From assembly GCA_949358305.1 (NCBI GenBank), contig OX442318.1, positions 13,994,517 through 14,058,516 of the forward strand: DNA of 64,000 nt. Reading direction: 5' to 3'. A program made the translations under genes and the position numbers. Source of the stretch: Strigamia acuminata (lineage: Eukaryota > Arthropoda > Chilopoda > Geophilomorpha > Linotaeniidae). The notes below the pieces were generated by a model. It ran no database searches, had not been told where the DNA came from, and saw only the letters and a program-made list of their open reading frames with translations. This document shows, in pieces, positions 18,025 through 64,000 of the stretch (the first letter of the stretch is position 1; each line of letters opens with the position of its first letter).

Positions 18025-18098
18025 TTTCTTTCGGTAATTCTACGATTTGGGTTATCTTATTGAGAGATCACAAGTTCAGATTTGAGATTTATTTCTAA

Positions 18099-45066: not shown

Positions 45067-45068
45067 AG

Positions 45069-45086: not shown

Positions 45087-45939
45087 GGTATCCTTGTAGC
45101 ACGCCGAAACCGCTAATTTTATCGTTATTTTCGCGAAATTCGCGAATTTGCGATAAATTTTCTATTTGCAGATTGCGCCGATTTCCGCGACGATTTTCGT
45201 CTCTAGAACGTTCGAGACGACACGCCGACGTTCTCACGTAGTCTGCACGACCAGCTCTACAATTTTTCATTTAATTTCGTCCGAATTTCTGCGGGTTTCG
45301 CAATTTTCGAGACGAATTTCAATTTATTTTCAGGTTTTCGCCATTTTCCAACGAGATTCGACGTTGGAAACCCACTGGACGCAGTGTGAACGACGAATTG
45401 AGGAATATCCCGACCTCGTACACAGTGTACGGTCGTTGTATCGACGATTTTTCTCGAAGAAACGACGATTTTCGACGATTTTCGCATTTAAATGCGCAAC
45501 AACGCCATTTTCGATTCTCGAATATTGGCGCAACGTCTCATCACACTAATTAATACTTGCCTTTCAGTTGTCGTAATTAGCTTGTTAGTATTTAAGGTCG
45601 TATTAAGTTTTTGTGGGTCCTTTAGAATAGTTTTTGCTCTTCTGTTCCAGTCGGAACTACCGCATTAACTCATTCCTAGCCAGTGCTTACCGTGGCCAAC
45701 AGGTACTCCCGCGCCTCCAGGCAGGCGAACGGACCCCTGTGTGTTGGCTGGCTAGGGTTATCTGACCACTTCAGAAGTGGTCGCCCAATTCGATTGATAT
45801 CCGCTTTGACAGTGCTTCGATTAGTGCGCCGTATTTGTGTAGTGCTACGCGATATTGTGCACCGAGACCGTCAAGTGCTCCAATTGTACCATTTTCCATC
45901 CAGTGTGTTTTGCTACGGATTGTTTCGTAACTCCACGTC
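45087..45939 (+). other. Long Copia leader
   Basis: About 850 nt between primer-binding site and ORF. It is rich in CGAA/TTCG words, including two near-adjacent TTCGCGAA palindromes (about 45133-45150). No coding role is visible; it may carry packaging or splice signals. Confidence 0.5.
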
Positions 45940-48900
45940 ATGTCGAAGTCCGCAGACGGAAATCCAGGACGTCTTCCCATCCTTAGCGTAGGAAACTACG
46001 AGCTTTGGCAGCGCTCAATGCGAATGGTACTCCGAAGCGAGGAATTGTGGGAACACGTAACGGAAGAAGAGGAGGTGGAATTCCTTAAAACCGCCGGAGA
46101 TAAGGAGAAGAAGAAGTACAAACGTCGGAAAGCCAAAGCATTAGGTTTAATATACTGTTCTGTAAGCGAGGCGAAGAAGTCTGCGCTAGATGATTGTAAA
46201 ACCCCGAAGGAAGCATGGGACATCTTAGCCAACATTTATGCGCCATCATCTCGTGCGCGACAGGCAGCCATGCGCAGCGAATTTTTGAATTTGCGCCTGG
46301 AGCAGGGCGAAGATATGGCCGACTTCTTAGGACGCGTAGACTATCATGTCCGCCAAATGAAGGATATCGGAGAGATAACTACGCCTGATCATCACGCTTA
46401 CCAATACTTGGACTTATTACCTCGTGAATATTCACAAATTTCATTCACGACATATCACTTGCCCAAAGGAGAATTTACACCAAAGAAAGTGTCTGAACAG
46501 TTGCTCGCGGAACATATGCGACTCAAAGCTATGGATTCGCGTGACATAGACAATTCTAAATCTCCACGTGCCTATGCTGGTGAAAAACAGCAACGTGGGA
46601 GAAATCGTTCTCGTCCCTCTCGACCGTTATCTTCGGTGCAGTGTTTTAATTGCCAGGAATTTGGCCATTACGCAAATAAATGTCCTTTGCCATCGCGCCG
46701 AGATGACAAGAATCAACCGGCAGCTTCACTTCAAAGGAAGCCGAGGAGTTCAAGCCGTAAACGCAATAAGAACTCAAACCGAGATGATTCTAGACCAAGG
46801 GGGAATTCCAGCGCAAGACGGGAAACTAACTTTTTCGCCAGTGCGCTTCAACCAATGCCCACAATTCACTTCATGCAATCACATGAATGGATAGTGGATT
46901 GTGGGGCAACGGATCATGTGTGCCACGTCCAGGCTTGGTTTCAGGACTTTGTTAAAGTTGTGCCCTTTAACATAGCATTGGGTCAAGGACATTCCGAAGT
47001 TCTTGGAAAGGGCAAAGTCCAGATTGTCACAATGATCAACAATGTAGAATGTGTCGTAAATCTCCAAGATGTGTTGTATGCGCCAAAATTTGAGGCAAAT
47101 TTGATTTCAGTGTCAAAAATGGACAAAACTAAACATCACATCCATATTTGGAATGGAGACGTCTATGTCTACAAATCCGACATTAAGCATCCAATGCTTC
47201 GGGCCAAAGAAAAGGGCGGCCTTTACTATGTTGACGGCTTGTGCCCACCTTCAACGTTGATATCAACAGTGGATGTGCCTATTGCGCAGTCGACCGCTCC
47301 GACCCGAACATTAGTCACGACAGAAGAGGATTTCATCCAGTATCCAAGGGCAAAGAAAAAGTCGAAAGATCCTGAACTTTTTACTGATTTTCGGCTCGAA
47401 TTCCCTCCTTTGCCAAATGAAATTCCTCCACCTGTACCAATTAAAGTAATCCAGTCCAAGACACTTCCTGTACCTACTCCCACCAATCCGTTACCTCAAG
47501 TCCCATCCTTTGCCAAGACATTAAAGGCAAACCCACCGATCTCCCAACCGAGTTCAAATTCAAAACCGAATTCAAAGCCAACCAACGCAAAGAAGGTTGC
47601 AGCACCATCGGTTAAAAAGGATGCGACAGGGATATGGCACAGCAGATTGGGTCACCTTCATACCAATGCGATGAAACTTTTGGCCGGAAATGACCAAGTT
47701 TACGGGGTCACACCGGCAGAAGTAAACAAAGAACTTTCATGTAATCATTGTCGAATTGCGAAATCAACGCGCATTTCTCATAAACCTGATGAACATCCTA
47801 TTTCTACAAAGGCTTTAGATCTCCTACACATGGACGTGTGGGGAGCTTCAAGAACGACTTCCTACGGAGGCGCGCGTTATGTGTTAACGATTATCGATGA
47901 CGCCACGCGCTATGCCTGGATATTTCCGATGGCCCAAAAATCCCAAGTGTTTGGACTCTTTAAGGACTATGTCACACGAATTGAACGAGTGACGGGCAAA
48001 CGAGTCAAGGCCATCCGAACAGACCGAGGAGGGGAATTCTTATCAAACGAATTCGACCGCTATTTAAAGGAAACTGGGATTCAAGCCCAACGGACCAATC
48101 CACATAGTCCCGCTATGAATGGCACAGCGGAAAGAATAAACCGCACCATGGCGGATTACACGCGTGCCATACTAGATGAAACTGGACTTCCAAACGAACT
48201 TTGGGCGGAATTCGCAGTGACTTTCTCGTACATAAAGAACCGGTGTCCTCATTCTCGTCTCAAAAATGAGGTGCCCTATATCCTGTGGCGACGACGTGCC
48301 CTTTCGCTCCGACACCTCCGCAAGTTAGGCTCCAAGTGCTGGGTTCATCATACAGCGCCCGGCAGGGACAAATTGGATCCACGAGCTTGGGAGGGCTATT
48401 TAGTCGGATACGCCACGACAACGCGAGGTTATCGCGTCTGGAATCCAACAGATAACAAGGTTATCGAGTCCATTCACGTCAAAATAGATGAACGGCAGTC
48501 CTATAAACGCTCAAATCATTATCGAGGTCCACAGGAACCGTGGACAGGACCAGATTTGGACCAAACGCATCAAGCGTCGCAAATTTATGAACCATTGCGC
48601 ATTCCACAACCGCAAGTGAGATTTGACGACGGACTAGAATATACTGATTGGCCCAAATTTCCGGATTCGGAAGATGAATGCGATACAGACTATGACTCTG
48701 ACGATTCAGCTCCGCCAGGCGCTCAAGCCCGGACACCACCAGGGTCTCCAATTAGGATTCCAACACCTGTCCTATCTCCAATAATTTCTCCAGTGATATC
48801 TCGAGCACCAAGCCCACTTATCACACCAGGTAATACACCAACTCACACACCGCCAGGAACACCACCGGGTTCACCACCACGTTTTGTGAATGCTCGTCGA

Positions 48901-50778
48901 GGTTCTCGTGGCAATGCGCCACAAGCCCATCCAGCAGCGCACCACGGTCCACCTCCAACTGGAGCTGCAACTGCATATAAATGGCGTTACATTGGTGGAG
49001 ATACTGAGTGCAGACACTGGAAAAGGGAGGAACATTTGCGCAAAGTGCAGGAACCTGGCAAATTGAAAACAGATGTTTATTATTTCCCAGAAGCAGGACT
49101 CCGATTACGTTCTAGAGGTGAAGTTGAGGAATTCTGTCACATGAACAATATTCCTTATGATCCTGAACTATTTTATTTTGGCAATATGGAATATGAATTG
49201 GAGGATCTTCCACAACCACTTCCCAGAGTGCACCTTTGTCGTCGTGATCCCACTAGTTACGCAGAGGCTGTGAGATTTCCGGATGCGACCAAATGGCAGG
49301 AAGCCATTAATGAAGAGTTGGACACTTTTGCAAAAAGAGGAGTCTATGAAGAGGTCCCTAAACCGGAAAATACAACCATATTAGGGTGCAAGTGGCTCTT
49401 CAAACTGAAGGAAGATGCTCTAGGCAAACCAGCCAGATATCGCGCCAGATTAGTGGCACAGGGCTTTCGCCAAACTTTAGGTGTAGACTACGATGAAGTC
49501 TTTAGCCCTGTTGTCAACTTTGTTCTCATACGCCTATTCTTCTGCCTGCTAGTAGTGCTTAAAGGGTGGAAGGACGCGCATTTGGATGTGAAGTGCGCAT
49601 ACCTATACGGTGATCTTGCGCATAAGGTGTATATGCGCATTCCAGCTGGCGCGACATGTTCGAACCCAAATCATGTATGGCTTTTGATAAAGTCTCTCTA
49701 TGGACTCCATCAGTCCGGGCGCCAATGGTTTGAAAAACTGGATCAAACATTGCGCGATTTGGGATTTCGAAGATTACCAGGATGCAACTGTGTATACATA
49801 TACGGAACTTCCGCCGTGATGCTAATATACGTCGATGATATAGTTCTATTTTACGCGACGGATAACGTCCTGACGCAATTAATTGCTCTCATTAGCACCA
49901 AATTCGATGTCGTGAATTTAGGACCAATTACGAAACTCTTAGGTGTAGAGTTCATTCGTACTCCCAAGGGAATCTTCATCATCCAACGTGCATACATACA
50001 GAAGATTCTCAAGAAATTTGAAATTATCGCCGATAAACTCATCAAGGTCCCAGTAACACCAGGAACGACGCTCGTCAAAGGGTCGAAAGAGGACTTGCCA
50101 GAATTTCCTTATCGTTCGTTAATTGGCTCTCTTCTCTTCCTCGCATCGAGGACACGACCTGATATATTATTCTCAGTTATAATGTTGTCACAGTTCAATA
50201 ATTGCTACAACCACACTCACATCAAAGCGCTCATGCAGGTTGTGCGCTACGTAGGCAATACTTTGGATTACGCAATTGAACTGTCAAATTGTTCCAATGG
50301 ACAACTATGGGGATATACTGACGCGTCCTGGGCCACCGAAGCCAGTACTTCCTTGAGTTTCGGTGGGTATATAGCCTATATTGGAAACGTCCCCATCGGA
50401 TGGAGTTGTCGTAAACAAACCAGCGTGGCGTGCTCAACGATGGAGGCGGAGTTTGTCGCCCTCGTTGAGTGCGTCCGTGAGCTGTATTGGCTCGATTACG
50501 TCTACAGTTCCGTACCGATGCTGAATAGATCTTCACCACCTTTAGTGTTCTCCGATGCGCTTTCTTCCATCCAATTCACATCAAATGACGTGGAGAACAG
50601 TAAAACGAAACATATCCGAGTGAAATTTCATTGGATTCGGGAATGGTACACAGCAGGTGCATTCCAATTGCGCAAGGTCCCCGGATCAATGAACGTGGCA
50701 GACATCTTTACCAAATGGTTGGGCTCATCTCAACTGCGTCTCCTGATTTCCCGGATTTTCAATTTCAACCTATCGTGA
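45940..50778 (+). CDS. gag-pol: Copia Gag-Pol polyprotein (1612 aa)
   Basis: A single frame from ATG to stop. Order: Gag with the Copia-type start (YELWQRSMRMVL) and one CCHC knuckle, CFNCQEFGHYANKC (from about residue 234); protease (about 317) where the usual DSG reads DCG; integrase with a zinc domain (HSRLGHLH...CNHC) and a DDE core including RTDRGGEF (about 695); a Pro-rich linker; RT with WLFKLK, GVDYDEVFSPVV and the catalytic YVDD (about 1295); and RNase H with GYTDASWA (about 1458). No stops. The protease Ser-to-Cys change and the LDVKCAYLYGDL variant of the RT motif are departures from the family norm. The element is otherwise intact and young. Confidence 0.95.
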   Translation: MSKSADGNPGRLPILSVGNYELWQRSMRMVLRSEELWEHVTEEEEVEFLKTAGDKEKKKYKRRKAKALGLIYCSVSEAKKSALDDCKTPKEAWDILANIYAPSSRARQAAMRSEFLNLRLEQGEDMADFLGRVDYHVRQMKDIGEITTPDHHAYQYLDLLPREYSQISFTTYHLPKGEFTPKKVSEQLLAEHMRLKAMDSRDIDNSKSPRAYAGEKQQRGRNRSRPSRPLSSVQCFNCQEFGHYANKCPLPSRRDDKNQPAASLQRKPRSSSRKRNKNSNRDDSRPRGNSSARRETNFFASALQPMPTIHFMQSHEWIVDCGATDHVCHVQAWFQDFVKVVPFNIALGQGHSEVLGKGKVQIVTMINNVECVVNLQDVLYAPKFEANLISVSKMDKTKHHIHIWNGDVYVYKSDIKHPMLRAKEKGGLYYVDGLCPPSTLISTVDVPIAQSTAPTRTLVTTEEDFIQYPRAKKKSKDPELFTDFRLEFPPLPNEIPPPVPIKVIQSKTLPVPTPTNPLPQVPSFAKTLKANPPISQPSSNSKPNSKPTNAKKVAAPSVKKDATGIWHSRLGHLHTNAMKLLAGNDQVYGVTPAEVNKELSCNHCRIAKSTRISHKPDEHPISTKALDLLHMDVWGASRTTSYGGARYVLTIIDDATRYAWIFPMAQKSQVFGLFKDYVTRIERVTGKRVKAIRTDRGGEFLSNEFDRYLKETGIQAQRTNPHSPAMNGTAERINRTMADYTRAILDETGLPNELWAEFAVTFSYIKNRCPHSRLKNEVPYILWRRRALSLRHLRKLGSKCWVHHTAPGRDKLDPRAWEGYLVGYATTTRGYRVWNPTDNKVIESIHVKIDERQSYKRSNHYRGPQEPWTGPDLDQTHQASQIYEPLRIPQPQVRFDDGLEYTDWPKFPDSEDECDTDYDSDDSAPPGAQARTPPGSPIRIPTPVLSPIISPVISRAPSPLITPGNTPTHTPPGTPPGSPPRFVNARRGSRGNAPQAHPAAHHGPPPTGAATAYKWRYIGGDTECRHWKREEHLRKVQEPGKLKTDVYYFPEAGLRLRSRGEVEEFCHMNNIPYDPELFYFGNMEYELEDLPQPLPRVHLCRRDPTSYAEAVRFPDATKWQEAINEELDTFAKRGVYEEVPKPENTTILGCKWLFKLKEDALGKPARYRARLVAQGFRQTLGVDYDEVFSPVVNFVLIRLFFCLLVVLKGWKDAHLDVKCAYLYGDLAHKVYMRIPAGATCSNPNHVWLLIKSLYGLHQSGRQWFEKLDQTLRDLGFRRLPGCNCVYIYGTSAVMLIYVDDIVLFYATDNVLTQLIALISTKFDVVNLGPITKLLGVEFIRTPKGIFIIQRAYIQKILKKFEIIADKLIKVPVTPGTTLVKGSKEDLPEFPYRSLIGSLLFLASRTRPDILFSVIMLSQFNNCYNHTHIKALMQVVRYVGNTLDYAIELSNCSNGQLWGYTDASWATEASTSLSFGGYIAYIGNVPIGWSCRKQTSVACSTMEAEFVALVECVRELYWLDYVYSSVPMLNRSSPPLVFSDALSSIQFTSNDVENSKTKHIRVKFHWIREWYTAGAFQLRKVPGSMNVADIFTKWLGSSQLRLLISRIFNFNLS

Positions 50779-50986
50779 CATTCTTAATTTAGTTTTACCC
50801 GAATTTTGAGGATCATCGAGTTCCAGTGGGAATTTTCGGGCTTCCGTAGTGATTAATTTAACAGTACCCGGCTCGATGTTCCGAATTATTATTTCCATTA
50901 TTATTATTCTATGTAAAGTTACATTTAAAGTTTTTCCCTTAACTTGTTCTTTATTTTTGCGGCTATTTGCCATCGAAGGGGGAAAT

Positions 50987-51456
50987 TGTTGTTTATCGAT
51001 GCCAAACAGTCCTCCGTACTTGTTTTGCGCATTTCTTAATGTATTACGGCATTATGCAGCCTAGTGTATTTATTAGGATTTATTTCATTATTTAACATTG
51101 GGCATAATGCTGCCTGCATCATGTTAGTATTAGTTTACTTTTTCCAACACCAGATGGTGTCACTTGTATGTTTTCTCTCAATCACAATGGCCGCTTGCAT
51201 GCCAGCAAGCACTCATGTATTTTCTCCATCTAAATGGACCAAATTATGTAAGCATTTTTGTTTTTATTAAACATTTAGTTTATTTTACATTGTGTTTGCT
51301 ATATATGAGCACTTTAGAGTGCAGTGACTTCATTTTCCACCATTTTCAAGCGCTGGAGGTGCGCGCACGTCATTGCGCTCATGTTAGCCGTGTTTCGGCA
51401 TTTAAACTCGCTTCCACACACAGTATTTTATACTGTGAGCGCACTCCTCTGCTACA
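50987..51456 (+). repeat. Copia 3' LTR
   Basis: Preceded by the purine tract GAAGGGGGAAA (50975-50985). Nearly identical to 44597-45066. Confidence 0.93.
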
Positions 51457-53505
51457 GATCCGTTGGTGAGGCCAGTGGCGCAAATGGTGCGGAGAATACC
51501 GTTTCACATCCGCAAACAGGTGGATGCGGAAATTGATAACCTGCTGAAAGCAGACATCATCGAACCAGTCACCGGTGCCACTGAATGGGTTTCGCCGATG
51601 GTTCCGGTGCGAAAACCGGACGGAACAATCAGAATTTGCCTCGACATGCGCGCGGTGAATGAGGCCGTGAAGCGCAACCGCCACCCATTACCCACGATGG
51701 ATGAGGTCCTGGACGAAATCGACGAGGCCGAAATGATAACGAAATTAGATTGCAGGTGGGGATACTTGCAAATCCCCTTGCAAGAAAATTCCAGGAAATA
51801 TACAGTTTTCGTCACACACCGCGGACTTTTCCAGTATAAAAGACTATTTTTCGGGATCGCGAGTGCTCCAGAGGAGTATCAACAAATCGTCCAAAACATT
51901 TTGGCCGATTGCGAGGGAACGCGTAATAGTCTTGATGATATCGTCGTACATGGTCGAACGACGAAAGAACACGACGAAAGGCTAGAAAAGGTATTAGAAA
52001 CTTTAATGCGTAACGGATTAACGTTAAATTTGAAAAAGTGTGCGTTTGGCGTGACGAGATTGACATTTTTGGGCCATATCATCTCGAAGAAAGGCATTTC
52101 CGTGGCGGAACAAAAGGTTGAAGCGGTTCGAAACGCGACAGCCCCGAAGAACGAAACGGAAATTAGGAGCTTTCTGGGTCTGGTCAATTACTGCGCCAGA
52201 TATATACCAAACTTTGCGACCATTGCAGAACCGTTGAGAGTTATGGCGAGAAAGGACGTCGTATTTAGTTGGAAAAAACCACAGAACGATGCCTTCAACA
52301 AGCTAAAAGAGAGTTTGTGCAGCTCGGGAACGCTCGCCTTCTTTAAGAAGAACGTGGAGACGGAACTGATAGTCGACGCGTCGCCAGTCGGGTTAGGAGC
52401 GGTCCTCGTGCAACGGCAAGTCGACGGACTAAACCAGCCGATCGCATACGCCAGCAGGACGTTATCCGACGTGGAACGCCGATACTCCACCACTGAAAAA
52501 GAAGCTCTCGCAATCGTTTGGGGCTGCGAGAGGTTCCGACTTTACTTGATTGGAATGCCATTCAAACTAATAACTGACCACAAGGCATTAGAAATCATTT
52601 ACTCGGTGAAGTCGAAGCCCAGAGCCCGGATCGAGAGGTGGGTGCTGAGGCTGCAACCGTACGAAGTTACGATCAAACATCGGCCAGGAAGTTCAAACAT
52701 CGCAGATGCGCTGTCCAGACTACTTCCGGTTGGAGAAGGAAAGACGGTGATAAAGAAAACAGAAAGATATGTGCATTTCATTCTCGAAAATGCCATTCCG
52801 AAGGCAATGACTTTGAAACACGTAGAAGCTGCTTCCAGGGCCGATGGTCAGATCTGCACAATCGCCACGAGTCTGCAGAACGCGACGAAGTTTACGCAAG
52901 AATTACAAAAATTCGAACCGATTCGAAATGAATTAACGATGGCGGGAGGCGTATTACTTCGCGGCACGAGAATCGTGATGCCGACGGCGTTGAGGAAAAA
53001 GGTCATCGAATTGGCACACAGGGGTCACCAAGGCGTCGTACGTACGAAACAACGCCTACGAGAGAAGGTCTGGTGGCCGGGCCTTGACCACGACGTCGAG
53101 AGCGCAGTGCGACAGTGCAGAGCCTGTCAATTTAACAGCAGCGCGAAAGAGAAGCCGGAGCCGATAAAAAGCACTATTTTACCAAAAGGGCCGTGGCGGG
53201 ACTTAGCGCTGGACATCTGCGGGCCATTCAACGATGGACATTCGATCATCGTGCTGGTGGACTATTATTCCAGGTGGCCGGAAGCACGAATTTTAAAATC
53301 GACGAAAGCAGAAAAGATAATAAGTTGGTTACGCGGAACTTTCGAGTGTTGGGGACTTCCCGAGACGTTGACGTCCGACAACGGGCCGCAGTTCGTTTCG
53401 GAGCAGTTTCGTGACTTCATGGACGAATGTGGAACGCAGCACAGAAGGGTCACACCGTACTGGCCTCAGGCCAACGGTCAAGTCGAAAGGTTAAACAAAT
53501 CCTTT
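51457..53505 (+). pseudogene. pol: Element B RT-RNase H-integrase, 3' part of a split pol, truncated
   Basis: Without the Copia element and one GATCC copy, the frame would be continuous with the upstream half. RT motifs: RICLDMRAVN, KLDCRWGYLQIPL, FGIASAPEEYQ and SLDDIVVHG at the catalytic pair. RNase H: IVDASPVGLGAVL and TDHKAL. Integrase: zinc domain (HRGHQG...CRACQ), ALDICGPF, TSDNGPQF and the last catalytic Glu in GQVERLN. The element C LTR begins only a few codons later, so the integrase tail and everything after it are missing here. The frame's last residues, to 53574, are LTR sequence. Confidence 0.88.
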
Positions 53506-54643
53506 TGTGGTGACCTCAAATATTCCTATTTGAGTGCGCACCATATTTCCAAATTGTCTTATAAACATATTTAACAAGCTTATATGTTTTGTTTCAATGT
53601 AAATTGAAATAAAACATACATTAATAAAATATAAAACAAGACACAATATTGCCCAAATAATATTGTGTTTTGCAGCAAGTTTTGGCCCGGCAACAGCGTC
53701 AACCAATCACGTTACGGCGTGCATTGCTTTGATGATGCTGCTAGGCGTGTGCCTGGGCGGAGCATCCCTTCCCCTCGCGCGTGCCCGGCTCGATTGTTGC
53801 ACACGACCCGAAGGCGGCCGTGTGTGATCTTCATGCAACTCGTCATCTGCGCAGCTTTTCTGAGCAGATTTAGAAGTGAGCCAAACGGTTTTGGCCCACT
53901 CTTCCCGCACTCTTGATTCCACCTCCAAACTGTTCACAACCGTGTCAAACTTCTGCCAAAACTGCAAAGTGTGATCTGTGATTCTTGGACGAATTGAGTT
54001 TCATCGCTGGTCTGTACCCACTGTACGGAATAGCAACTTTCTAGCTTGAATTACTACACGTAATTTAAGCCATTTCTGTGTGTGAATTGACATTGAGCTT
54101 GCTCTGTCAATTTGTAGTTCTTTGTGTCGAGCTTGCTCCACAAAGAAATCTGTGTGAAACTAACATCGAGTTTACTCTGTTAGTTTGAAGGCTTTGTGTC
54201 GAGTTTAACTCCACAAAGCGAATTGTGTTAAGACGGATTGTTACGTCGAGCTTGCTCCGTAATAATCAAACCGCTGTGTGCAAGACGTATTCTCGTGTTG
54301 AGCTTGCTCCGCGAGGATTTTAGAATATTTAGCAACGTATTTTGGCGTTGAGTTTACTCCGCCAAAATCCCGCGCTCACACGACGCCATCGACGCCATCT
54401 TGGAGCCAACGGTCAACTGTGAGTGTAGATATTGAAGAAGAAGCCAGATCGACCCCAAACATTTTAAATAATACCTCCTTTGTATTTTGAACGATTAAAA
54501 CTATCTAATTTTTCCTTTACTCTGTGTAAAATCATTCCCCTAGACAAACATTTGGCCACAGAGTAGAAGTCCTGTACGGCATCTCTACGACGATTATTTG
54601 ATAAGTCTCCTCGATTTATTAAGTAAAAACCCGGATCGCCGCA
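53506..54643 (+). repeat. Element C 5' LTR (1138 bp)
   Basis: The left edge TGTGGTGACC is where the element B frame ends and matches the LTR starts of elements I and O. The right edge GCCGCA is set by the primer-binding site. Hairpins: CTCAAATA-TTCC-TATTTGAG (53515-53534); a 16-bp stem with GTAA loop (53583-53618); a 14-bp stem (53637-53672); then the seven-hairpin array at 54085-54368. Confidence 0.82.
54085..54368 (+). repeat. Array of seven hairpins with constant cap and co-varying stems
   Basis: Hairpins at 54085-54112, 54118-54147, 54157-54186, 54191-54219, 54236-54267, 54289-54318 and 54339-54368. Every one has 8-10 paired bases around a cap T[C/T]GAG[C/T]TT[G/A]CTC (the fourth has one extra A). 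The stems differ: AATTGACA, TTCTTTGTG, AAACTAACA, GCTTTGTG, GATTGTTACG, ATTCTCGTG and ATTTTGGCG. Only three pairs in all are G-U, and none is a mismatch. Within the cap, GAG/CTC adds three pairs closing a CTTG or TTTA tetraloop, leaving a 2-nt T[C/T] bulge on the 5' side. If transcription starts upstream in the LTR, the array lies in the 5' leader of the genomic RNA. I infer an RNA structural role such as packaging or protein binding. Confidence 0.9.
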
Positions 54644-54645
54644 CT

Positions 54646-54663
54646 TGGGGGCCCGTCCGGGAT
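54646..54663 (+). other. Primer-binding site of element C
   Basis: TGGGGGCCCGTCCGGGAT, identical to that of element I, two bases after the LTR. Proline-tRNA-like. Confidence 0.85.
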
Positions 54664-54735
54664 AGTTTTGATTGTTAAAATCCGATTTTTGCGAAAAAAT
54701 CCTTTATTTCCATTGTTCTTTTTCAATTTGACAAA

Positions 54736-57630
54736 ATGGCTACGCCAATGCAAATTGTGAAACGACAGCGAGGTCGACCAAGCACTCAGAAACGAGCAGC
54801 GACGGTTTTGCCGGCTCTCGAGCCTGAAATGCTTATGGAGAAAATTATTTCTGAAGAAATAACACCAGTTCCAGATCCGAAACAACTTAAGGATGCTGAA
54901 AATGAAGTTGCTAGAGCATTGAGCGCTTCAAGTGCGAGTTCTAACGAACAAGAACTCCCGCCACTTCCACTGGAGGAAGTGGAAAATACGTTACGTGAAA
55001 TGGAAAGTGAATCGTCTCATGAATCACCTCCTCGCATGACCATGTTGGATGCTTTGAGAAATCAAGCACGCCAGGATGGCGCCCAAATAACGGACGACAT
55101 GACGGTGGAAGAGATTCATCGCGCCATGATACGACTTCATACTGATCGTGCCGTTTCAAATTTACAATTTGAAATGGAACGAAAAGAAGCTGAGCTTCAA
55201 CAACAAAAAGCGGAGGTTGAGCTTCAACACATGGAACTCAATCGACAAAATGAGGAATTTCTAGCCCAAAAAGCTAGAGAATACAGATTAAAAGGTGAAG
55301 TGGAAGATCTTTCTAAAATGAATACTAGAAATGAACTTTCAATTCGCTCACACCAAGAGGCGCGAAGACAGCTCGAGCTTACCAAAAGTAAGCTGGAGCA
55401 GAAAAATAAAGAACTGATTGATTTGGCAGACCACTACCAACGCAATCATAATCAACTAGTGAGATATGCTGCTGAATTAGACACACGTGCTAAAACACAG
55501 CGTACTCGCGAAAGCAAAATAGCTAAGCGTGAAGACGAGATTTTCCACTCACTGGATCAACCCAGTACGAGCGGACAAGTCAAGTCTAGCGACCCTGCTA
55601 AGCGATTACAACCAGAAGAATCGCAAAATCAAATAAATGAGAATGAAATTCTCCGAGCTGATTTGTTGCGCGCTCAAGAAGAGCTTGCAGAAATGAAAGA
55701 TCGTTTGCAAGCAAGAAATTATACTGACCAATTGGTGCAACCAGAAATGGCTGCGCCAACTGTTCCTATTTTGACTCCCGAAACAATAACAATTTCTGTT
55801 GTTTCAGAGTTAAGTAGCCAATCTGGATTATCGAGTGATGACGACCAACGTTCGCGTCGCCGCCATCGCTCAAAAAGAAAACGTCCTTCAGATTCCGAGG
55901 AAAGGAGAGCTGATCGCAATCCACTTCCTGGTAATCGAAATCCTATTTTTCACAACAGTGACCGACTGTTGGGGATGGTAGACGATCGAAATAGACGGCA
56001 TGAAACTGGTATTCATGTTACTCGAACGATACCACTGGCTCAACAGCAAGACTCGTCAAAAAGAAGTCGACGAGACACGAATCCAGCACGCGAACCACCC
56101 GACGGACATGAAAGCCCGCCAGGTGGGGGTCAGTATAGAAGAAATCCACCAGATGGAGGAAATCCAGATGGACATGGAGATGGACCACCTGGAGGTGGAC
56201 GTCGACCGCCAGACGATGACGGCGACCCACCCGACCCACCTGAAACGCCACATTTTAACACGCCTTCAAATTCACAATCTGATTCAAGGTCGGATTCTGA
56301 TGCGAATGCGCAACAAGAACGCGATAATCGACATCGATCTCATCGACGTCGACATCGAGGCCACTCTTCACGGCGTAATACACATTATTACACTGCTGAA
56401 GAAATTGATCGATTATTAGCTGATCGTCGATCTTCCGATCGACCTGACGCTACTGCCGATAATGCTGACATTGCACTACGACAGAAAATTGCTCAATACA
56501 CTGCCAACAACTGGACGCACGATCTAGTTGATGAAAGAACTATTAGATGGGATCACATCAAACCCGCTTTATTCGACGGAGAATGGGAAGCTGGATCCAC
56601 TCTTCTAGACGAAGTTTTACGAATTTCAAGGTTGAATGGCATTGCATGTCACACTGCTTTGAAAAGAGTAGTACCAAAAGCTCTTATAGATCGAGCTGAG
56701 AAATGGTTTTATTCTAAACAATTTCAAAACTGGAATCACTTTGTAGAGGAATTCATGACTGAATATGGAGAGTCAAGTGAAGACTTACTACAAATGTGGG
56801 ATAATCTTTCTCAAAATAAAGGCGAAAGTCTTCGCTCTTATTTAAGAAGGACTGAGGATTTATTGGTCACTCTCCCTTATACGATGGGAGACGCAGCCAT
56901 TGATCGTCAATTCCGTCGTGGATTGACTGATTACTCAAAAAATGTTCTACTTTCTGTACGAGCACCTTATCCGGGTGGTTTCGCTGAATTAGCCAAATTT
57001 ATGCAAGCCAATCAGATAAGGATTGATGAAAATTATAAAGCTTATCTACCAGCTGATGAAAAAGTTGCGTACGCTAAGCGACAGCAACGGAGAAAGGAGT
57101 TGGCAAAAGACACACGTTTTGCTAATACCCCTCTTTTGCAACCCCCAAAACGAGGAGATTTTTTGGCAGAAACTGCTAAAGAATCAAAAAAGGGATCGGA
57201 TGGGAAAAATCCACATCCAACCCCTAAAGCTCACTTAGCCGAAGTGACAGATATGGAAGCTGCTTCTGAACCAGAGAAATCTGACTCGGAACCAGAAAGC
57301 GAGGCTGCAGCTGCTTTATTAGCCCGTAATAACGCAGTAGCTCGAAAATTTGGACCAAAGATGGCGCCTAAAAACGTTACTTTTGGTTCACCAAAGACAG
57401 ACGCGCTCAGTAGATCGAAGTCGCCGACCCCGAAAAAGGACGAAGCCAAACGCTCAAGTTCGCCTTCGCCAAAAGTCGCGAAATCGCCTGCTACTGACCC
57501 GTGTAATATTTGTAAAAAATTAGGACATTGGGCTAAAGAATGTCCTGACAGAAAATCGAGCAAAGACAAGATTATTGAGGAGTTCGAGAAATCGATGAAA
57601 TCAATCGGCGAACTTCTAAAAAACTTGTAA
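54736..57630 (+). CDS. gag: Element C Gag (964 aa)
   Basis: Starts at an ATG 72 nt after the primer-binding site. A long coiled coil lies at about residues 130-280, followed by an Arg/Ser-rich and Gly/Pro-rich middle. Then comes a capsid-like domain (IRWDHIKPALFDGEW, ...KWFYSKQFQNW, EYGESS) and one CCHC knuckle, CNICKKLGHWAKEC (about 923-936). The plan and the capsid segment match the element I Gag. The N-terminal coiled coil shares short patterns with the element O protein. The frame is intact and ends two codons after the slippery heptamer. Confidence 0.9.
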   Translation: MATPMQIVKRQRGRPSTQKRAATVLPALEPEMLMEKIISEEITPVPDPKQLKDAENEVARALSASSASSNEQELPPLPLEEVENTLREMESESSHESPPRMTMLDALRNQARQDGAQITDDMTVEEIHRAMIRLHTDRAVSNLQFEMERKEAELQQQKAEVELQHMELNRQNEEFLAQKAREYRLKGEVEDLSKMNTRNELSIRSHQEARRQLELTKSKLEQKNKELIDLADHYQRNHNQLVRYAAELDTRAKTQRTRESKIAKREDEIFHSLDQPSTSGQVKSSDPAKRLQPEESQNQINENEILRADLLRAQEELAEMKDRLQARNYTDQLVQPEMAAPTVPILTPETITISVVSELSSQSGLSSDDDQRSRRRHRSKRKRPSDSEERRADRNPLPGNRNPIFHNSDRLLGMVDDRNRRHETGIHVTRTIPLAQQQDSSKRSRRDTNPAREPPDGHESPPGGGQYRRNPPDGGNPDGHGDGPPGGGRRPPDDDGDPPDPPETPHFNTPSNSQSDSRSDSDANAQQERDNRHRSHRRRHRGHSSRRNTHYYTAEEIDRLLADRRSSDRPDATADNADIALRQKIAQYTANNWTHDLVDERTIRWDHIKPALFDGEWEAGSTLLDEVLRISRLNGIACHTALKRVVPKALIDRAEKWFYSKQFQNWNHFVEEFMTEYGESSEDLLQMWDNLSQNKGESLRSYLRRTEDLLVTLPYTMGDAAIDRQFRRGLTDYSKNVLLSVRAPYPGGFAELAKFMQANQIRIDENYKAYLPADEKVAYAKRQQRRKELAKDTRFANTPLLQPPKRGDFLAETAKESKKGSDGKNPHPTPKAHLAEVTDMEAASEPEKSDSEPESEAAAALLARNNAVARKFGPKMAPKNVTFGSPKTDALSRSKSPTPKKDEAKRSSSPSPKVAKSPATDPCNICKKLGHWAKECPDRKSSKDKIIEEFEKSMKSIGELLKNL

Positions 57631-57659
57631 GCGCGCATCCCGACGGTCTAGTGGATGCG
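57618..57659 (+). promoter_or_regulatory. -1 ribosomal frameshift signal of element C
   Basis: The A AAA AAC heptamer at 57618-57624 is in register with gag (CTA AAA AAC TTG TAA). After a 9-nt spacer, CGCATCC (57634-57640) pairs with GGATGCG (57653-57659) around a 12-nt loop. CGGT in that loop (57644-57647) could pair with ACCG (57666-57669) as a pseudoknot. A -1 slip enters the pol frame exactly. Confidence 0.88.
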
Positions 57660-58697
57660 ACGCCTACCGCCTCGGAAAATGAACTAACACCATCTCAAAT
57701 TTTGGATGAATTTTTGAATACTCAGATTAAATTAGAAATCGAAAATAATTTAATATTTCCAAAAATTGATGTTTCCAGTTTAAGGCTTGTGCTGCAAAAT
57801 GAAAACATCACTGAGGAATTTTTTAAAGAAAAAGTTCAACAAATAAAAGTTGATTGGGAATCTAAAATAAAAGATGCTGTTACTTTACTAGATGGAAAAG
57901 CTAGGCCCACACCTGAAATTGTTGAAAGGTCAGATAAAATTGTTTTACCTGGTCTTGATGAATGTATTGAAAAATTAATGGCTACAACGCTAGTCACTAA
58001 TGATTTATTGGACGAATTACCATTGGATCCGCCGATAGAAATTAAGCCACCGCGACGTTTTAAATGCAAGTACGCGGACATACCAAACAGCAATGATTTG
58101 CCGACGATTCGATTGCAGACGGCAAACGGTATGATAACAGGGATGTTAGACTCTGGAGCTAATCGAAGCTTCATGGCCTACTCCGTAGTAATTTCGCTGA
58201 AACTGGAAGATGAAATTCGACCAATAGGACCGGATGTGAGAGTCACGACTGCTTCCGAAGACGTAGTCCCTGAAGGAACTCTCCTACTTTCTTTTGCGTG
58301 GACACACGGGATGTTAAGTCATCCATTCATAATTTTAAGAAATAAATATCCTATTATTTTATTAGGATGTGATTTCATGAATCGACTCAATATTCAACCA
58401 AATCCTAAGACCATGTCTTGGAATTTTGTCAAAACTTTGAAAGAAGATTTACCTTTTGTTCCTCAAGCGATTCTTGATCGTTATCAAGAGTTCCTTGATC
58501 CACCCGAAGAAATCATGAGAAGCGACTTTATTAAAGCAAATCACATGAAAGCTGGCTCTGCCACTGCGTGTCAAGCTAAAGTTGCAAATGAAGAAAATAT
58601 AGTACAAAGACTTGTTAGCGACGCTAATTTGTCAATGGAAAATAATTTAATGCTTGAAAAAGTATTAAAGAAACATGAAAAGATTTTATCACGCTGA
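57624..58697 (+). CDS. pol: Element C Pol, protease part, ending at an in-frame TGA
   Basis: Continues from the frameshift; there is no ATG near the junction. An N-terminal spacer is followed by an aspartic protease with MLDSGANRSFMA and a downstream LLGCDFMNRL flap-to-end motif. A TGA at 58695-58697 stops the frame just before the conserved PGRT segment that introduces RT. The downstream frame stays in register, so this is one point change and not a frameshift. It could be a simple inactivating mutation or, less likely, a readthrough site. Confidence 0.85.
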   Translation, partial: LVSAHPDGLVDATPTASENELTPSQILDEFLNTQIKLEIENNLIFPKIDVSSLRLVLQNENITEEFFKEKVQQIKVDWESKIKDAVTLLDGKARPTPEIVERSDKIVLPGLDECIEKLMATTLVTNDLLDELPLDPPIEIKPPRRFKCKYADIPNSNDLPTIRLQTANGMITGMLDSGANRSFMAYSVVISLKLEDEIRPIGPDVRVTTASEDVVPEGTLLLSFAWTHGMLSHPFIILRNKYPIILLGCDFMNRLNIQPNPKTMSWNFVKTLKEDLPFVPQAILDRYQEFLDPPEEIMRSDFIKANHMKAGSATACQAKVANEENIVQRLVSDANLSMENNLMLEKVLKKHEKILSR

Positions 58698-61600
58698 CCA
58701 GGTAGAACACACCTCGTTAGGCATGAAATTAAACTGGACACTAAAGTTCCTATTAGAGTTCCGTTTAAAAGCGTAAATCCACAAAAACGTGAAATTATCC
58801 GTCAAATCTGTCAAGACATGTTGGATAATGGGTACGTTGAACAAGCCACTGGAGACTATGGAATGCGAATAGTTCTAGTGATGCGTCCGGATTGTGATCC
58901 GAGACTCTGCATTGATTTTAGACCACTCAATGCACATACATTATACGATCCTCCTCAAATGCCAAGCATTGAGGAAATCTTGCGAGAACTCGGAAGGTTT
59001 GAATGGGTCACAACGATAGATTTGTCAAAAGGCTATTGGCAGATAGAGGTTCATCCGAACGACCGTGCGAAAACTGCGTTTTGGAGCCCTTTGGGTCGAC
59101 TACAATTTCGAGTCATGCCCTTTGGCCTCGTAAATGCGCCGTCAACTTTTCAAAAGTTGATAGAAAAAATTTTGGGGGATGCCTATCAAAAATTCGCATG
59201 GGCATACCTCGATGATATAATTATTATATCAAAAAATTTTGAAGAACACATGATTCATCTGGAAGAAATTCTGAGTAAACTTGAAAATGCAAATCTTCAT
59301 GTTCATCCAGAAAAATCAAAATTTGGCAGAAAAGAATTAACTTTTCTTGGTTACAAGTTAAGTGTTCAAGGAGTTAGTGTCGACCCTAAAAAAGTCGCCG
59401 CCATTAAAGAAATGCCAGCCCCTTCAAATTTGAAAGAGTTGCAAAGATTTTTGGGAATGGTGAACTTTTTTCACCGATTACTCAAGAATCTTGCAGTCAT
59501 GACAGAACCTCTACGTCCTTTACTCAAAAAGGATGTGGAATTTATTTGGTCAGAAATTCATCAAGAAGCTTTTGATCAAATAAAAGATGCTTTAACGAAT
59601 GCAGAAACAATGGCCATGCCTGATTTGACAGAACCATTTATTGTGCATACCGACGCCAGCAGAAAAGGACTAGGCGCCGCGCTTATGCAAATGAGGGAAA
59701 TCGATGATCAAAATATCGAAGTGCCTTGTGTTTATGCCAGCAGAAGTTTGCAACCTGCTGAGATAAATTACAGCGCCACAGAATTGGAGTGCCTAGCGGT
59801 AATCTGGGCATTACGTAAATTTCGACATTATTTGGAATTTACCACATTCATAGTTAGGACTGACCATCAAGCACTAAAATGGTTGATGCAGTTAGACGAA
59901 CCTGCCGGAAGGTTAGCACGTTGGCAAATGGAGCTGATGCGCTACTCTTTCGAAATACAATATATTAAAGGTCCACTAAATGTTTTAGCGGATGCTTTAT
60001 CCAGATCGCCGATTGACAAACCGGAAAATCCTGAAGATGATGGAGATAATGACGAGTTATTATCTTACTGTCCATCACCTCAACGAAATTGGAAAATGGG
60101 AAAATTTCATGAACTTCCTGTCTCCACGCTGGAGGAAAAGGAAGATCACGAATTCGTCAATTATTGGACTAAAATTTATGACCCCTCTGAGGAATCAGAT
60201 GACGTCATAAGAGCGCAAATTTCAAGGAAATTCCAAGTTCCTTCGTCAAATATTTTAATAAAAGCATTTGTCGCCAAAATTGTAGAACGTCTTGATTGTG
60301 AACCTCCCACAAGGGAAGACATAATCAAGGCCCAAAAAGAAGATAAAGTTTGCCAATTGATGCGTAATTTTTTAAATTGTAATCAATTTCCGCCTGACGT
60401 CACAACGCGACTCCAGAGGAAACAATATAGAAAACACGCAACCACCTTCTTAATTGAAGATGACTTATTAATGCAATTTCATCCCACAATGTCTGATGAA
60501 TTGGGGGAGGATGGGAGAGCACTCAAAGTTTTTGTACCTCAGACATTGAAGTATAAAATTATTTGGCTGATGCATGGCCACCCACTTTCTGGCCACCCAG
60601 GAATTGCAAGGACTCTTTATCGAGCACGCCGAATTTATACCTGGAAAGGCATGAAATCGGACATTACGAGATTCATTCGACATTGCGAGCGTTGTCAAGC
60701 TTGCAAACCTCGAACGAAAGGACAAATTGAAGCAGCGCAAATGGGTCCTTACAGCCCATTTGACTGTCTAAGTGTTGATTTGACCGGCCCGAAACCTCGG
60801 ACGCGCAAAAACAACACACATATTTTAGTCATACTTGACGTGGCAACTCATTGGCCAGAATTATATCCAATGTGTAACCCCACTGCTGGAAAAGTAGCAA
60901 ATTGCATTTATCACCTTTCCATGAGCATGGGATTCCCTCGTAAAATTATTTCTGACAACGGCCCGCAATTTCGTGCCCAAGTCTTTAAAAAATTTTGTGA
61001 AAAGTTCAAGATGGTTCCAACACCAACTTCAACATATCACCCACAAGCTAACCCGGTTGAAAGGGTTAACCGTGACATCAAATATTTAGTTGCAATTTAT
61101 TCATCTGTTCATTCCAAATGGGACGAATATTTGCGTGAATTTGCATTTAGTTTGAGAACTACGGTGACGAGAGGAAGAGACTTCTCTCCCGCATTTCTAA
61201 ACTTTTTTCGCGAACTCAGAGTACCTTGGGATCCAAGAATACCTGAAGGAATTTTGGTCGTAGATCCAAAAAACCCACATTTATACGTGCAAAAATTAGA
61301 AGCCGTTATCGCCGAAACATATCAGCACATGATGTCACACGTGTTAGATTTGCGTAGACGAGTTAATCTTAAAAAAGAAGGTGAGAAGTTCTCCAATTTT
61401 AAATTAAACGATTTAGTTTGGAGAGATTCTCATGTTTTGTCAAGCGCCGCCCGCGGCATTGCAGCTGGCATCGCTGATAAAAGAACAGGACCATATGTAA
61501 TAACCAAAGTATTACAAGGAGGATCCGTAGAATTGAGAAAGCTAGAAAATAACGAAATATTTCCAGCTGTCCATTCGTCTGAATTAACTCCGTATTTCCC

Positions 61601-62099
61601 GAGTTTCGATCAGGAAGTATGGTTAGAAGGCGAAGAAGTCGGTCAAAAGACTGAAAATATAATTAATACGTTAGATGACGATGAATTAAAGAAAATACCT
61701 GTCGATAATTCATCCAAACCACAAATGGAGTCAGACCTCGTGAATAACGACGTTGAACTTCGTGACAGTTTCAAAAAGCTTGAAATTGCTAAAAAATTAA
61801 ATAAAAAGGTGTTTTTAGAAAAGAAACAAAAAACATCTGAAATAAAAGACTCATCTGACTCAGTCTCCGATGACAATGAAGACGGCGATTTAAATACAAT
61901 AAATCCCTCGCCGACAAAGAGATATAATCTTCGGACTCGTAAACCGAGAGGAAAAAACAACATGTGTCTTCTCCCCTCGATAACCTCGAGATCCAGGGAT
62001 CAGCCGTATGACGTAAGGAGCAATTCCCCAAGCCATACGCAAACCAATCAAACAATAAGATTGGATGACGTCACTAACCGCGACGTTACCCAAACGTAA
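58698..62099 (+). CDS. pol: Element C Pol, RT-RNase H-integrase part
   Basis: Same register as the protease part. RT: LCIDFRPLN, DLSKGYWQ, MPFGLVNAPSTFQ and YLDD (59205-59216). RNase H: VHTDASRKGLGAAL, TDHQAL. Integrase: HGHP...CERCQAC zinc domain; SVDLTGP, SDNGPQF and NPVERVN catalytic core; KRTGPYVI as the GPY/F module. An acidic tail as in element I follows. All catalytic residues are present, so only the upstream TGA blocks a full Pol. The first ATG of this part is at about 58818. The last codons overlap CRE- and CCAAT-like sequences. Confidence 0.92.
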   Translation, partial: PGRTHLVRHEIKLDTKVPIRVPFKSVNPQKREIIRQICQDMLDNGYVEQATGDYGMRIVLVMRPDCDPRLCIDFRPLNAHTLYDPPQMPSIEEILRELGRFEWVTTIDLSKGYWQIEVHPNDRAKTAFWSPLGRLQFRVMPFGLVNAPSTFQKLIEKILGDAYQKFAWAYLDDIIIISKNFEEHMIHLEEILSKLENANLHVHPEKSKFGRKELTFLGYKLSVQGVSVDPKKVAAIKEMPAPSNLKELQRFLGMVNFFHRLLKNLAVMTEPLRPLLKKDVEFIWSEIHQEAFDQIKDALTNAETMAMPDLTEPFIVHTDASRKGLGAALMQMREIDDQNIEVPCVYASRSLQPAEINYSATELECLAVIWALRKFRHYLEFTTFIVRTDHQALKWLMQLDEPAGRLARWQMELMRYSFEIQYIKGPLNVLADALSRSPIDKPENPEDDGDNDELLSYCPSPQRNWKMGKFHELPVSTLEEKEDHEFVNYWTKIYDPSEESDDVIRAQISRKFQVPSSNILIKAFVAKIVERLDCEPPTREDIIKAQKEDKVCQLMRNFLNCNQFPPDVTTRLQRKQYRKHATTFLIEDDLLMQFHPTMSDELGEDGRALKVFVPQTLKYKIIWLMHGHPLSGHPGIARTLYRARRIYTWKGMKSDITRFIRHCERCQACKPRTKGQIEAAQMGPYSPFDCLSVDLTGPKPRTRKNNTHILVILDVATHWPELYPMCNPTAGKVANCIYHLSMSMGFPRKIISDNGPQFRAQVFKKFCEKFKMVPTPTSTYHPQANPVERVNRDIKYLVAIYSSVHSKWDEYLREFAFSLRTTVTRGRDFSPAFLNFFRELRVPWDPRIPEGILVVDPKNPHLYVQKLEAVIAETYQHMMSHVLDLRRRVNLKKEGEKFSNFKLNDLVWRDSHVLSSAARGIAAGIADKRTGPYVITKVLQGGSVELRKLENNEIFPAVHSSELTPYFPSFDQEVWLEGEEVGQKTENIINTLDDDELKKIPVDNSSKPQMESDLVNNDVELRDSFKKLEIAKKLNKKVFLEKKQKTSEIKDSSDSVSDDNEDGDLNTINPSPTKRYNLRTRKPRGKNNMCLLPSITSRSRDQPYDVRSNSPSHTQTNQTIRLDDVTNRDVTQT

Positions 62100-62307: not shown

Positions 62308-64000
62308 ATGGAAGGAGAGGAACCGAAAGAAGGAAGCGAAGCCGGCGCCAACAGCCTCGAATTAGAAACAAATTCGACGCTGCTTGGTTCCGCAAATACT
62401 TCGAATACATCCGTGGATGTCACCGAAGAGTCCGCCGAAGCGTCCGCCGAAGCTCAAGCCGCTCTGGCCGACGCTGCTGCCCGTTTGCCAGTCACGCCGC
62501 CCCGACCACAACTTCGAGGAGGCCTATTCGCCGATCCAAACGGCGAAACTCGTGCGCAGAGACACGACCGGGTAAATAAATTAAAATAAAATTACCTTTC
62601 AGTCATGAAAAGTAATTAAAAGTGCATTTTCACTCGGAAAAAGCGAAAAGTTCGTTGGTAACGCCTTCGCAAGAAGGCGCCGCCATTATTATCAGCAGAT
62701 GGCGCTGTGTCTCGTTTTTGAGGCGTTGCTACGGTAACGCTCCAAACATTGAAACATAGCCGTCGGAAACAACGTTTTTTACGATTTTTCAAATATTTTG
62801 AAAGATTTAATGAATCTAAACTGTCGAATGAAATCTCACCCGTGATTTTATTCACTGAAAATTCGGAAATAATTATTTTACACGAAAAAATGGATTTTAA
62901 TTATTTCTTCGAATATTTTACAGATCATCCAGCTTCGGGAGACGCATCTCGAACTGCACCCCGATGTTCCGACCGCTCCTGGAGTCTGGCGACATGCATT
63001 GCCGCCGGAAATCATCAAGTCCAAGGGACGATTGACGTTTTGGGCGGCCCGCCACAAATTCTCCAAAGCATTAAACAAGCGATGGGGAACGAAGTTTCGG
63101 ATCGCCTATTTAATCGATGGATTCGGTCATCGCGACGCCCTCGAGTGGGCAATGAAGCGCGATACCTTCGGACCACTGCGAAACGTGTTGCTTGACTTCG
63201 CCTTCACAGTGATCACTCAAGAAACGCGAGACCATCGCCGCTACTTCAACGCTCCTGCGTGGGAGCGTCGACAGATTCTAGAGGACATTTTCCAACGCTT
63301 GGACCAGACCAAGGCCGAGATTGTACGCCTCTACAACGAATCTTTCCGTGTAACGACGGACGGAAAGAAACGTTGGGTGCCGACATGCCAGTCGGAAATG
63401 CATCAACTTGCCATGGGTGGATGTTTCCATGCAGATTTCGTGCCAAACCCGTATCTAGAGCCTGAGCCCCGGGTACAGGTCGCTTCCACCATCCACGTGG
63501 TGCCACCGCGCTCCACGTCGAGGTCACGATCATCGAGGTCGCCCTACAGTGGTCGTCGCTCCTCCCCAACTCAGTCGTCGGGGGAAGGCGCCATTGGGGG
63601 ATTACCTCAACTTGAAAAGACTCGTCATCGCTCACATCACCGACGCGAGTTGACACCGCCAAAAAGACATTCGAAGTCCGTGTCGAGACCCACATCCCGA
63701 AGCCGACCTCGAGTGCAATCGCGCCAATCTTCCACGAGGAGTTCACTCTCGTCGCGTGAAGAAAAGTCCAGCGCTTCACAGCTTAGCGCTCCCTCCTCCG
63801 GCCGGATTGACTGGTCGGACGAGATAGCGAAAGAAGATCGACGCATCGCCGCATTGCAAGCCGGTCATGGAGACGTCAACACCTCTTTGCCGTTCGCTTG
63901 CCGTCCAGTCACCAGCGACATGCGACCAGACCTATCGGTGCCCGTGCCACAAGTGACATCGGTCATCCGTTTTGAGGGATACATCTCTCAAGAACCGTTC
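62308..64000 (+). CDS. Element C ORF3: spliced accessory protein, partial
   Basis: Exon 62308-62571 (88 codons from ATG, acidic, Ala/Glu/Ser-rich, ends CGG|GTAAAT) joins in phase 0 to an exon starting at 62924 (after TTTTACAG) that is open to the window edge. A leader intron (62223-62299, GTAAGT...TTAG) probably precedes the ATG. The second exon encodes a helical domain with RRQILEDIFQRL and RWVPTCQSEMHQL, matching element I ORF3, and then an Arg/Ser-rich region. There is no signal peptide or membrane segment in the visible part. Intron phase and place agree with element I. The C-terminal W-x-H motif would lie beyond the window. Function unknown. Confidence 0.72.

What the first reader, a model, noticed from the sequence alone, without database searches (positions are those of the whole stretch)
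54085..54368. Seven consecutive LTR hairpins: constant cap, different but fully paired stems
Reading the LTR of element C shows seven stem-loops in 284 bp. The apical sequence (T[C/T]GAG[C/T]TT[G/A]CTC) is nearly invariant while the 8-10 bp stems are unrelated in sequence, yet every stem pairs with only three G-U pairs in total and no mismatch. Independent stems around a constant cap are classic evidence of selection on folding. The cap can form GAG/CTC closing a CUUG or UUUA tetraloop above a 2-nt bulge, a geometry suited to protein recognition. I know of no described retroelement leader like this. Candidate roles are multivalent Gag or ORF3 binding for packaging, dimerisation, or translation control.
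Basis: seen in the sequence. Interest (0 to 1): 0.9.

Follow-up and report, generated by a model that had tools for sequence, protein, structure and literature searches.

The report
Tandem RNA docking hairpins in retrotransposon
A jumping element that copies itself through RNA carries several small RNA hairpins in a row whose tips stay the same while their stems change in matched pairs, which suggests repeated docking sites for a protein.

Summary
Seven hairpins lie at 54085-54368 in the 5' LTR (53506-54643) of a ~12.95 kb Ty3/Gypsy element: 62 stem pairs, 3 G-U, no mismatch. Other copies were used to test the folding. In hairpins 5-7 of 61 distinct copies 99.1% of cells pair; all 10 stem variants found in two or more copies keep pairing, while 10 of 17 private variants break it (P=0.003). 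One-sided changes go to G-U more than expected (22 of 31, expected 10.2). Selection on RNA folding is well supported. Correction: hairpins 1-2 and 3-4 are a tandem duplication, and 48 of 63 arrays show five hairpins. The cap (bulged U-Y, helix GAGY/RCUC, mostly UU loop) has the sequence features of an arginine sandwich motif, as in TAR and 7SK RNA. Best reading: multivalent docking sites for an arginine-rich RNA-binding protein, most likely the element's own Gag, for assembly or packaging. Binding, transcript ends and partner are untested. Rfam gave only chance-level matches, and my paper searches listed nothing like it.

The parts
53506..54643 (+). 5' LTR, TG...CA, flanked by target duplication CTTT
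   Evidence: 99.9% identical to the 3' LTR at L039:1436-2573; ends read by eye
54085..54112 (+). hairpin H1, cap GAGCTTGCTC, bulge TT
54118..54147 (+). hairpin H2, cap GAGCTTGCTC, bulge TC
54157..54186 (+). hairpin H3, cap GAGTTTACTC, bulge TC; tandem paralogue of H1
54191..54219 (+). hairpin H4, cap GAGTTTAACTC (3-nt loop), bulge TC; tandem paralogue of H2
54236..54267 (+). hairpin H5, cap GAGCTTGCTC, bulge TC, one G-U
54289..54318 (+). hairpin H6, cap GAGCTTGCTC, bulge TT, two G-U
54339..54368 (+). hairpin H7, cap GAGTTTACTC, bulge TT; two stem pairs change on both sides among copies
54494..54499 (+). ATTAAA, candidate polyadenylation signal downstream of the array
   Evidence: present in 59 of 59 LTR tails aligned, some of them partner LTRs of one insertion; use not shown
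54646..54663 (+). primer binding site TGGGGGCCCGTCCGGGAT (tRNA-Pro type, name recalled)
   Evidence: read
54679..57627 (+). gag frame (stop to stop; first ATG 54736): Retrotrans_gag, CCHC knuckle, arginine-rich stretch at residues 391-402 of the frame
57579..58694 (+). protease frame (aspartyl protease match below the curated cut-off, DSGA)
58698..62096 (+). reverse transcriptase, RNase H, integrase frame
62873..64000 (+). ORF3, no Pfam family in the part inside the window; continues beyond it (L039:1-1257)

Best explanation
The LTR encodes an array of mostly five to seven RNA hairpins that are under selection as RNA (shown by comparison of copies). Each presents nearly the same head on an exchangeable stem: a 2-nt bulge U-Y, a short helix GAGY/RCUC and a small, mostly UU loop (shown). 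The head has the sequence features of an arginine sandwich motif, in which a bulged pyrimidine forms a triple with the A-U pair two steps above the bulge and an arginine stacks between it and the paired base below (inferred). The array therefore works as a multivalent docking site for an arginine-rich RNA-binding protein, most likely the element's own Gag, which has a stretch RSRRRHRSKRKR and a zinc knuckle (inferred). Repetition raises avidity, so that Gag picks the full-length RNA for assembly (inferred).
For: Pairing held across 61 distinct copies of hairpins 5-7: 99.1% of cells against 97.9 shuffled, 45 cells changed on both sides against 17.1. Shared stem variants 10 preserving / 0 breaking; private 7 / 10. 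One-sided changes to G-U 22 of 31, expected 10.2, tree built without stem columns. 21 selected paralogues and orthologues: 99.2% paired, covariation score 0.76 against 0.29 shuffled. Head positions in the unfiltered alignment: A of the predicted triple 182 of 182, its U 182 of 183, bulge U 181 of 182, while bulge position 2 varies (C 118, U 63, A 1). In 328 hairpins found by a pairing-filtered finder, 327 have a purine-pyrimidine pair below the bulge, 327 bulge U, 327 A-U second pair; 315 have these three and the first G-C pair. Patterns with a C-G or T-A pair below the bulge occur at about chance genome-wide (13 against control 13; 21 against 13). Sandwich geometry from PMC6189040, passages only. 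The Gag stretch has 9 of 12 basic residues.
Against: No binding, structure or transcript data. The second loop base (U), the C of the third cap pair and the loop-closing pair are as invariant within hairpins as the sandwich positions, which a sandwich alone does not explain. In the cap, 6 of 7 variants break the pair and two of those are shared; over all hairpins cap changes went 10 to A-C and 5 to G-U. Some are G to A in the context TCGAG and may be CpG decay. The number of pairs with a two-sided change and of further pair types did not exceed shuffles. Retroviral packaging loops are described as purine-rich (PMC5086612, passages); these are U-rich. A host arginine-rich protein would fit as well. 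The Gag search found no relatives, so conservation of its basic stretch is untested; ORF3 also has an arginine-serine-rich tract.
Confidence: 0.45

Rival explanations
1. The hairpins bind a host factor, not Gag: for instance HEXIM/P-TEFb by mimicry of 7SK, an export factor, or a translation or stability factor.
For: The head has the features described for the 7SK and TAR bulges; an older LTR family in the same genome carries the same cap on other stems.
Against: No host partner identified; presence of 7SK or HEXIM in this host not tested; the older family may simply be related (local alignment of LTR tails 36 against a best of 30 in 300 shuffles for one locus, 23 against 27 for another).
Confidence: 0.25
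2. A Tat/TAR-like transcription switch: a protein on the nascent hairpins promotes elongation or export.
For: Head features as in TAR.
Against: If the start site lies near the CCAAT-like box at 53703 (read by eye, inferred), the array is some hundreds of nucleotides downstream, unlike TAR (recalled). Rfam search of 53500-54800 down to E 5 gave no TAR match. A small Tat-like frame was not looked for (one search listed frames of 200 aa or more).
Confidence: 0.12
3. The stems are kept perfect by mutation (template switching between arms), without function.
For: Template switching can create and repair hairpins (PMC8794818, abstract and start of introduction); two H7 pairs change on both sides together, 15 inferred events.
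Against: G-U pairs persist at high frequency (54, 46 and 30 of 61 at three pairs), which arm copying would remove; caps are conserved beyond pairing; private variants break pairs while shared ones do not.
Confidence: 0.08
4. DNA-level array of protein sites, as an insulator or promoter element.
For: Tandem sites in a gypsy leader are known for the gypsy insulator (recalled).
Against: A DNA site needs no covarying stems and would not favour G-T over A-C mismatches; stem changes from Watson-Crick pairs went 56 to G-U and 8 to A-C, still significant after correcting for the neighbouring mutation bias (P 0.012 and 0.0006).
Confidence: 0.06

Closest known systems
HIV TAR and 7SK stem-loop 1 arginine sandwich motifs
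   Same: Pyrimidine bulge, A-U pair at the second step above it in TAR and 7SK ASM3, paired base below it (PMC6189040 passages); TAR lies in the 5' leader (PMC7395439, abstract and start of introduction)
   Different: Several tandem copies; small U-rich loop; no trans-activator identified; different kind of element; no TAR match in Rfam
Retroviral packaging signals (psi stem-loops of MLV and HIV-1)
   Same: Several stem-loops at the 5' end of the RNA that bind nucleocapsid (PMC5086612 passages; PMC7395439, abstract and start of introduction)
   Different: Those loops are described as purine-rich; here one cap is repeated, and it lies in the LTR
Ty1 and Ty3 packaging determinants
   Same: LTR retrotransposon RNA bound by Gag or its zinc-knuckle nucleocapsid (PMC4974528 passages)
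   Different: No repeated hairpin array appears in the passages I saw
Drosophila gypsy insulator (tandem Su(Hw) sites; recalled)
   Same: Tandem short sites near the 5' end of a gypsy element
   Different: Sites act as DNA; no covarying stems (recalled)

Membership tests
Ty3/Gypsy (Metaviridae) LTR retrotransposon | LTR pair, gag with capsid and knuckle, RT-RNaseH-integrase order | tested here: met
Arginine sandwich motif (TAR/7SK type) | bulged pyrimidine able to form a triple with the A-U pair two steps above | tested here: met
   sequence features only: bulge U 181 of 182, A 182 of 182, partner U 182 of 183 in hairpins 5-7; definition from passages
Arginine sandwich motif (TAR/7SK type) | paired nucleotide below the bulge forms the sandwich base | tested here: met
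   sequence feature only: purine-pyrimidine pair in 327 of 328 hairpins of a pairing-filtered set
Arginine sandwich motif (TAR/7SK type) | arginine intercalation in a solved complex | not testable with these tools
   needs NMR or crystal structure
TAR (Rfam) | match to the curated model | tested here: not met
   no TAR match down to E 5 in 53500-54800; that Rfam holds a TAR-type model is recalled
TAR element | trans-activator encoded by the element | not tested
   small frames were not searched (one search used 200 aa); ORF3 matches no Pfam family in the part inside the window
Packaging signal | located in genomic RNA | tested here: inconclusive
   follows from LTR anatomy by reasoning; ATTAAA downstream in 59 of 59 tails; no transcript data
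Packaging signal | binds Gag and directs packaging | not tested
   needs binding and packaging assays

The most novel reading that the evidence does not exclude
A Ty3/Gypsy element has evolved a Tat/TAR-like RNA code independently: tandem arginine-sandwich hairpins, resembling 7SK and TAR, read by an arginine-rich region of its own Gag or by host HEXIM/P-TEFb. The number of hairpins (five or seven) would tune avidity.
Probability: 0.28. Interest if true: 0.88.

Novelty: new variant of a known kind. Interest (0 to 1): 0.72.

Why it matters
LTR retrotransposons outside yeast have few defined RNA signals (recalled). A repeated, covarying hairpin with a constant head gives a directly testable packaging or regulatory code, with natural copy-number variants (five and seven hairpins) in one genome. 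If the sandwich reading is right, the recognition used by lentiviral TAR and cellular 7SK also arose in a distant element, which would bear on how RNA-arginine recognition evolves.

Tried and rejected
Rfam search of 53500-54800 down to E 5: five matches, E 1 to 3.6, all far below the gathering scores. Gag against 5.8 billion proteins: none of 7990 candidates scored at E 0.001. Pol search: 4398 proteins, best 120 listed with identities 27-48%; no host identification. PDB sequence search: gag weak matches to Arc capsid (E 0.014) and nucleocapsid p10 (E 0.028-0.035); protease frame none. Naming the host through a COX1 search failed. The hairpin model could not be run on the whole genome. No match of the element's proteins in the 30 older-LTR loci. 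Alignment A2 held two misplaced rows and was replaced by A3 and A4. Counts that lean towards pairing: and the 328 hairpins use hairpins found with a filter (at most 2 mismatches in 8 pairs, and a cap pattern); A3 and A4 are selections of mine. The counts on A1 use no such filter. L007 was dropped from A1 because its array stops after two hairpins (61 of 62 rows used). One search aligns H1 with H3 in short arrays, so its two-sided events include paralogue exchange; avoids this. The 15 two-sided events lie in only two pairs of H7 and their number depends on the tree. AlphaFold was not used: no relatives of Gag for an alignment.

Full report
What is there. The finding lies in the 5' LTR of a Ty3/Gypsy element. 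Comparing the window with the stretch downstream gives a second LTR at L039:1436-2573, 99.9% identical over 1138 bases. The LTR is 53506-54643 by its TG...CA ends and a 4-base duplication CTTT of the target, which is the integrase frame of another gypsy element (read by eye). The arrays of the two LTRs are 11,813 bases apart, so the element is about 12.95 kb. Inside are gag (54679-57627; Retrotrans_gag and CCHC), a protease frame (57579-58694), RT-RNaseH-integrase (58698-62096) and a long ORF3 from 62873.

The observation. Seven hairpins occupy 54085-54368. Folded alone, all seven take the same stem-bulge-cap shape. Together they are more stable than 200 shuffles (z -4.28). The cap pattern occurs only there in the window: 6 exact matches, 0.39 expected; the seventh cap, H4, has one extra A. 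The stem count is right: 62 pairs, 3 G-U, no mismatch, with H1 counted as 8 bp.

Copies. The genome (237.5 Mb) has 1156 matches of TYGAGYTTRCTC against 494 for the reversed control, and 353 spaced cap pairs against 0. Of the 129 loci held when arrays were extracted, 90 gave an array, 63 distinct; some are the two LTRs of one insertion or overlapping fetches. Layouts among the 63, as the finder saw them: H1 H4 H5 H6 H7 27; H3-H7 11; all seven 10; H1 H2 H5 H6 H7 10; five other layouts once each. H1-H2 and H3-H4 are a tandem duplicate. So the usual state is five hairpins; whether seven is an expansion or the source of deletions is open.

Is the folding under selection? For H5-H7 I aligned 61 distinct copies without any pairing filter (A1). 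Over 38 pairs, caps included, 99.1% of 2313 cells pair, shuffled 97.9 +/- 0.1; 45 cells changed on both sides against 17.1; sliding the partners drops pairing to 35-59%. The number of pairs with a two-sided change (2) and of further pair types (18) did not exceed shuffles; the same two measures did not clearly exceed shuffles in the 21 selected hairpins either. Two pairs of H7 switch between A-U and G-C with both sides changed in 25 and 20 copies. On a tree built without stem columns, stems change 1.38 times per column against 2.46 in spacers, caps 0.56, loops 0.42, bulges 3.17. One-sided changes from Watson-Crick pairs: 22 to G-U, 6 to A-C, 3 other; 10.2 G-U expected from the spacer spectrum, none of 100,000 simulations as high. 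Over all seven hairpins the figures were 56 G-U, 8 A-C, 18 other; neighbouring sequence also shows an A-to-G excess, and after allowing for it the P values are 0.012 for A-T and 0.0006 for G-C pairs. The clearest test: stem variants of H5-H7 found in two or more copies are 10 pair-preserving and 0 breaking; private ones are 7 and 10 (Fisher P 0.003), while spacer variants are 42 shared and 21 private. Breaking changes arise but stay private. Against this, in the cap pairs 6 of 7 variants break the pair and two of them are shared, and cap changes in all hairpins went 10 to A-C and 5 to G-U; some are G-to-A in the context TCGAG, possibly CpG decay.

The head. In 21 selected paralogues and orthologues the two loop-closing positions covary (C-G 12, U-A 8, U-G 1), so the helix is probably GAGY/RCUC with a 2-nt loop, 3 nt in H4; the folding tool draws a 4-nt loop in the six others. 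In the unfiltered alignment the first bulge base is U in 181 of 182, the second varies between C and U, the A two steps up is invariant (182 of 182), its partner U 182 of 183. The pair below the bulge is purine-pyrimidine in 327 of 328 hairpins of the filtered set, and patterns with C-G or T-A there are at about chance in the genome; common descent of the hairpins could also explain that. This fits the arginine sandwich motif as described for TAR and 7SK: a bulge pyrimidine in a triple with a stem pair (U23 with A27-U38 in TAR; U40 with A43-U66 in 7SK) and the paired nucleotide before the bulge as base (PMC6189040, passages). It is a sequence-level fit, not a structure, and other head positions are as invariant.

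An older LTR family. One cap hit (L050) led to further loci (L080-L109). Some carry the same cap on a stem GAGTCCCG/CGGAACTC; 8 of the 10 hairpins I aligned have a C-A mismatch at the same pair. Their relation to this family is uncertain: LTR tails align above shuffles for one locus and not for another. In more diverged loci the head shortens, for example to GAC-TT-GTC.

Is it in the RNA? In an LTR element the start site must lie upstream of the polyadenylation site, or there is no R region. The RNA runs from the start site through the 5' LTR and, at the other end, from the 3' LTR start to the polyadenylation site, so every LTR base is in the RNA at one end at least. An ATTAAA lies downstream of the array in 59 of 59 aligned tails, some of them partner LTRs, which suggests the array is at the 3' end; whether it is also at the 5' end is not known.

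What it does. Repetition of one head on changing stems is what a multivalent docking site looks like. Gag is the favoured partner because it carries RSRRRHRSKRKR (9 of 12 basic) and a knuckle, and because Ty3 Gag associates with its RNA through knuckle and basic region (PMC4974528, passages). This step is inference. Host partners are the main rival.

Literature. Searches (listings only; 15 of 31, 0, 12 of 13, 9, 1 and 1 papers shown) listed no paper whose title or abstract start describes tandem constant-cap hairpins in an LTR retrotransposon; the library is open-access only. [quoted passage not shown]

Limits. One genome, host unnamed. Copies recombine, so tree-based counts are approximate. 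Counts of hairpins outside A1 depend on a finder that favours paired stems.

Noticed in passing
window 53585-53616 and 53637-53672: Two further long hairpins near the LTR start, AT-rich and without the cap (z -4.9 and -5.9 for the stretches folded).
   Followed up: partly
window 51439-53505 and L039 from 2574: The element sits inside the integrase frame of another gypsy element, with a CTTT duplication.
   Followed up: partly
window 44597-51286: A copia-type element with identical 300-base repeats at both ends; its frame also has an above-cutoff match to a methyl-CpG binding domain at residues 1030-1083.
   Followed up: no
window 10784-18039, - strand: Another gypsy element with protease, RT, RNase H and integrase.
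   Followed up: no
L080-L109: Older LTR family, some loci with the same cap and a recurrent C-A mismatch in the stem; head shortened in diverged loci.
   Followed up: partly
copies of the LTR array: Spacer and flank substitutions on the transcript strand favour A to G over T to C (56 against 21), as RNA editing might leave.
   Followed up: no
L006/L007: Chimeric LTR: two hairpins, then sequence that no longer matches the LTR.
   Followed up: no
G000:C1 27-41 Mb: Many of the array copies listed lie in this stretch of contig C1 (the listing stops at its first 100 places, so this may be an effect of the cut).
   Followed up: no
window 62873 to L039:1257: ORF3, a long frame after pol with an arginine-serine-rich tract and no convincing Pfam family.
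   Followed up: partly
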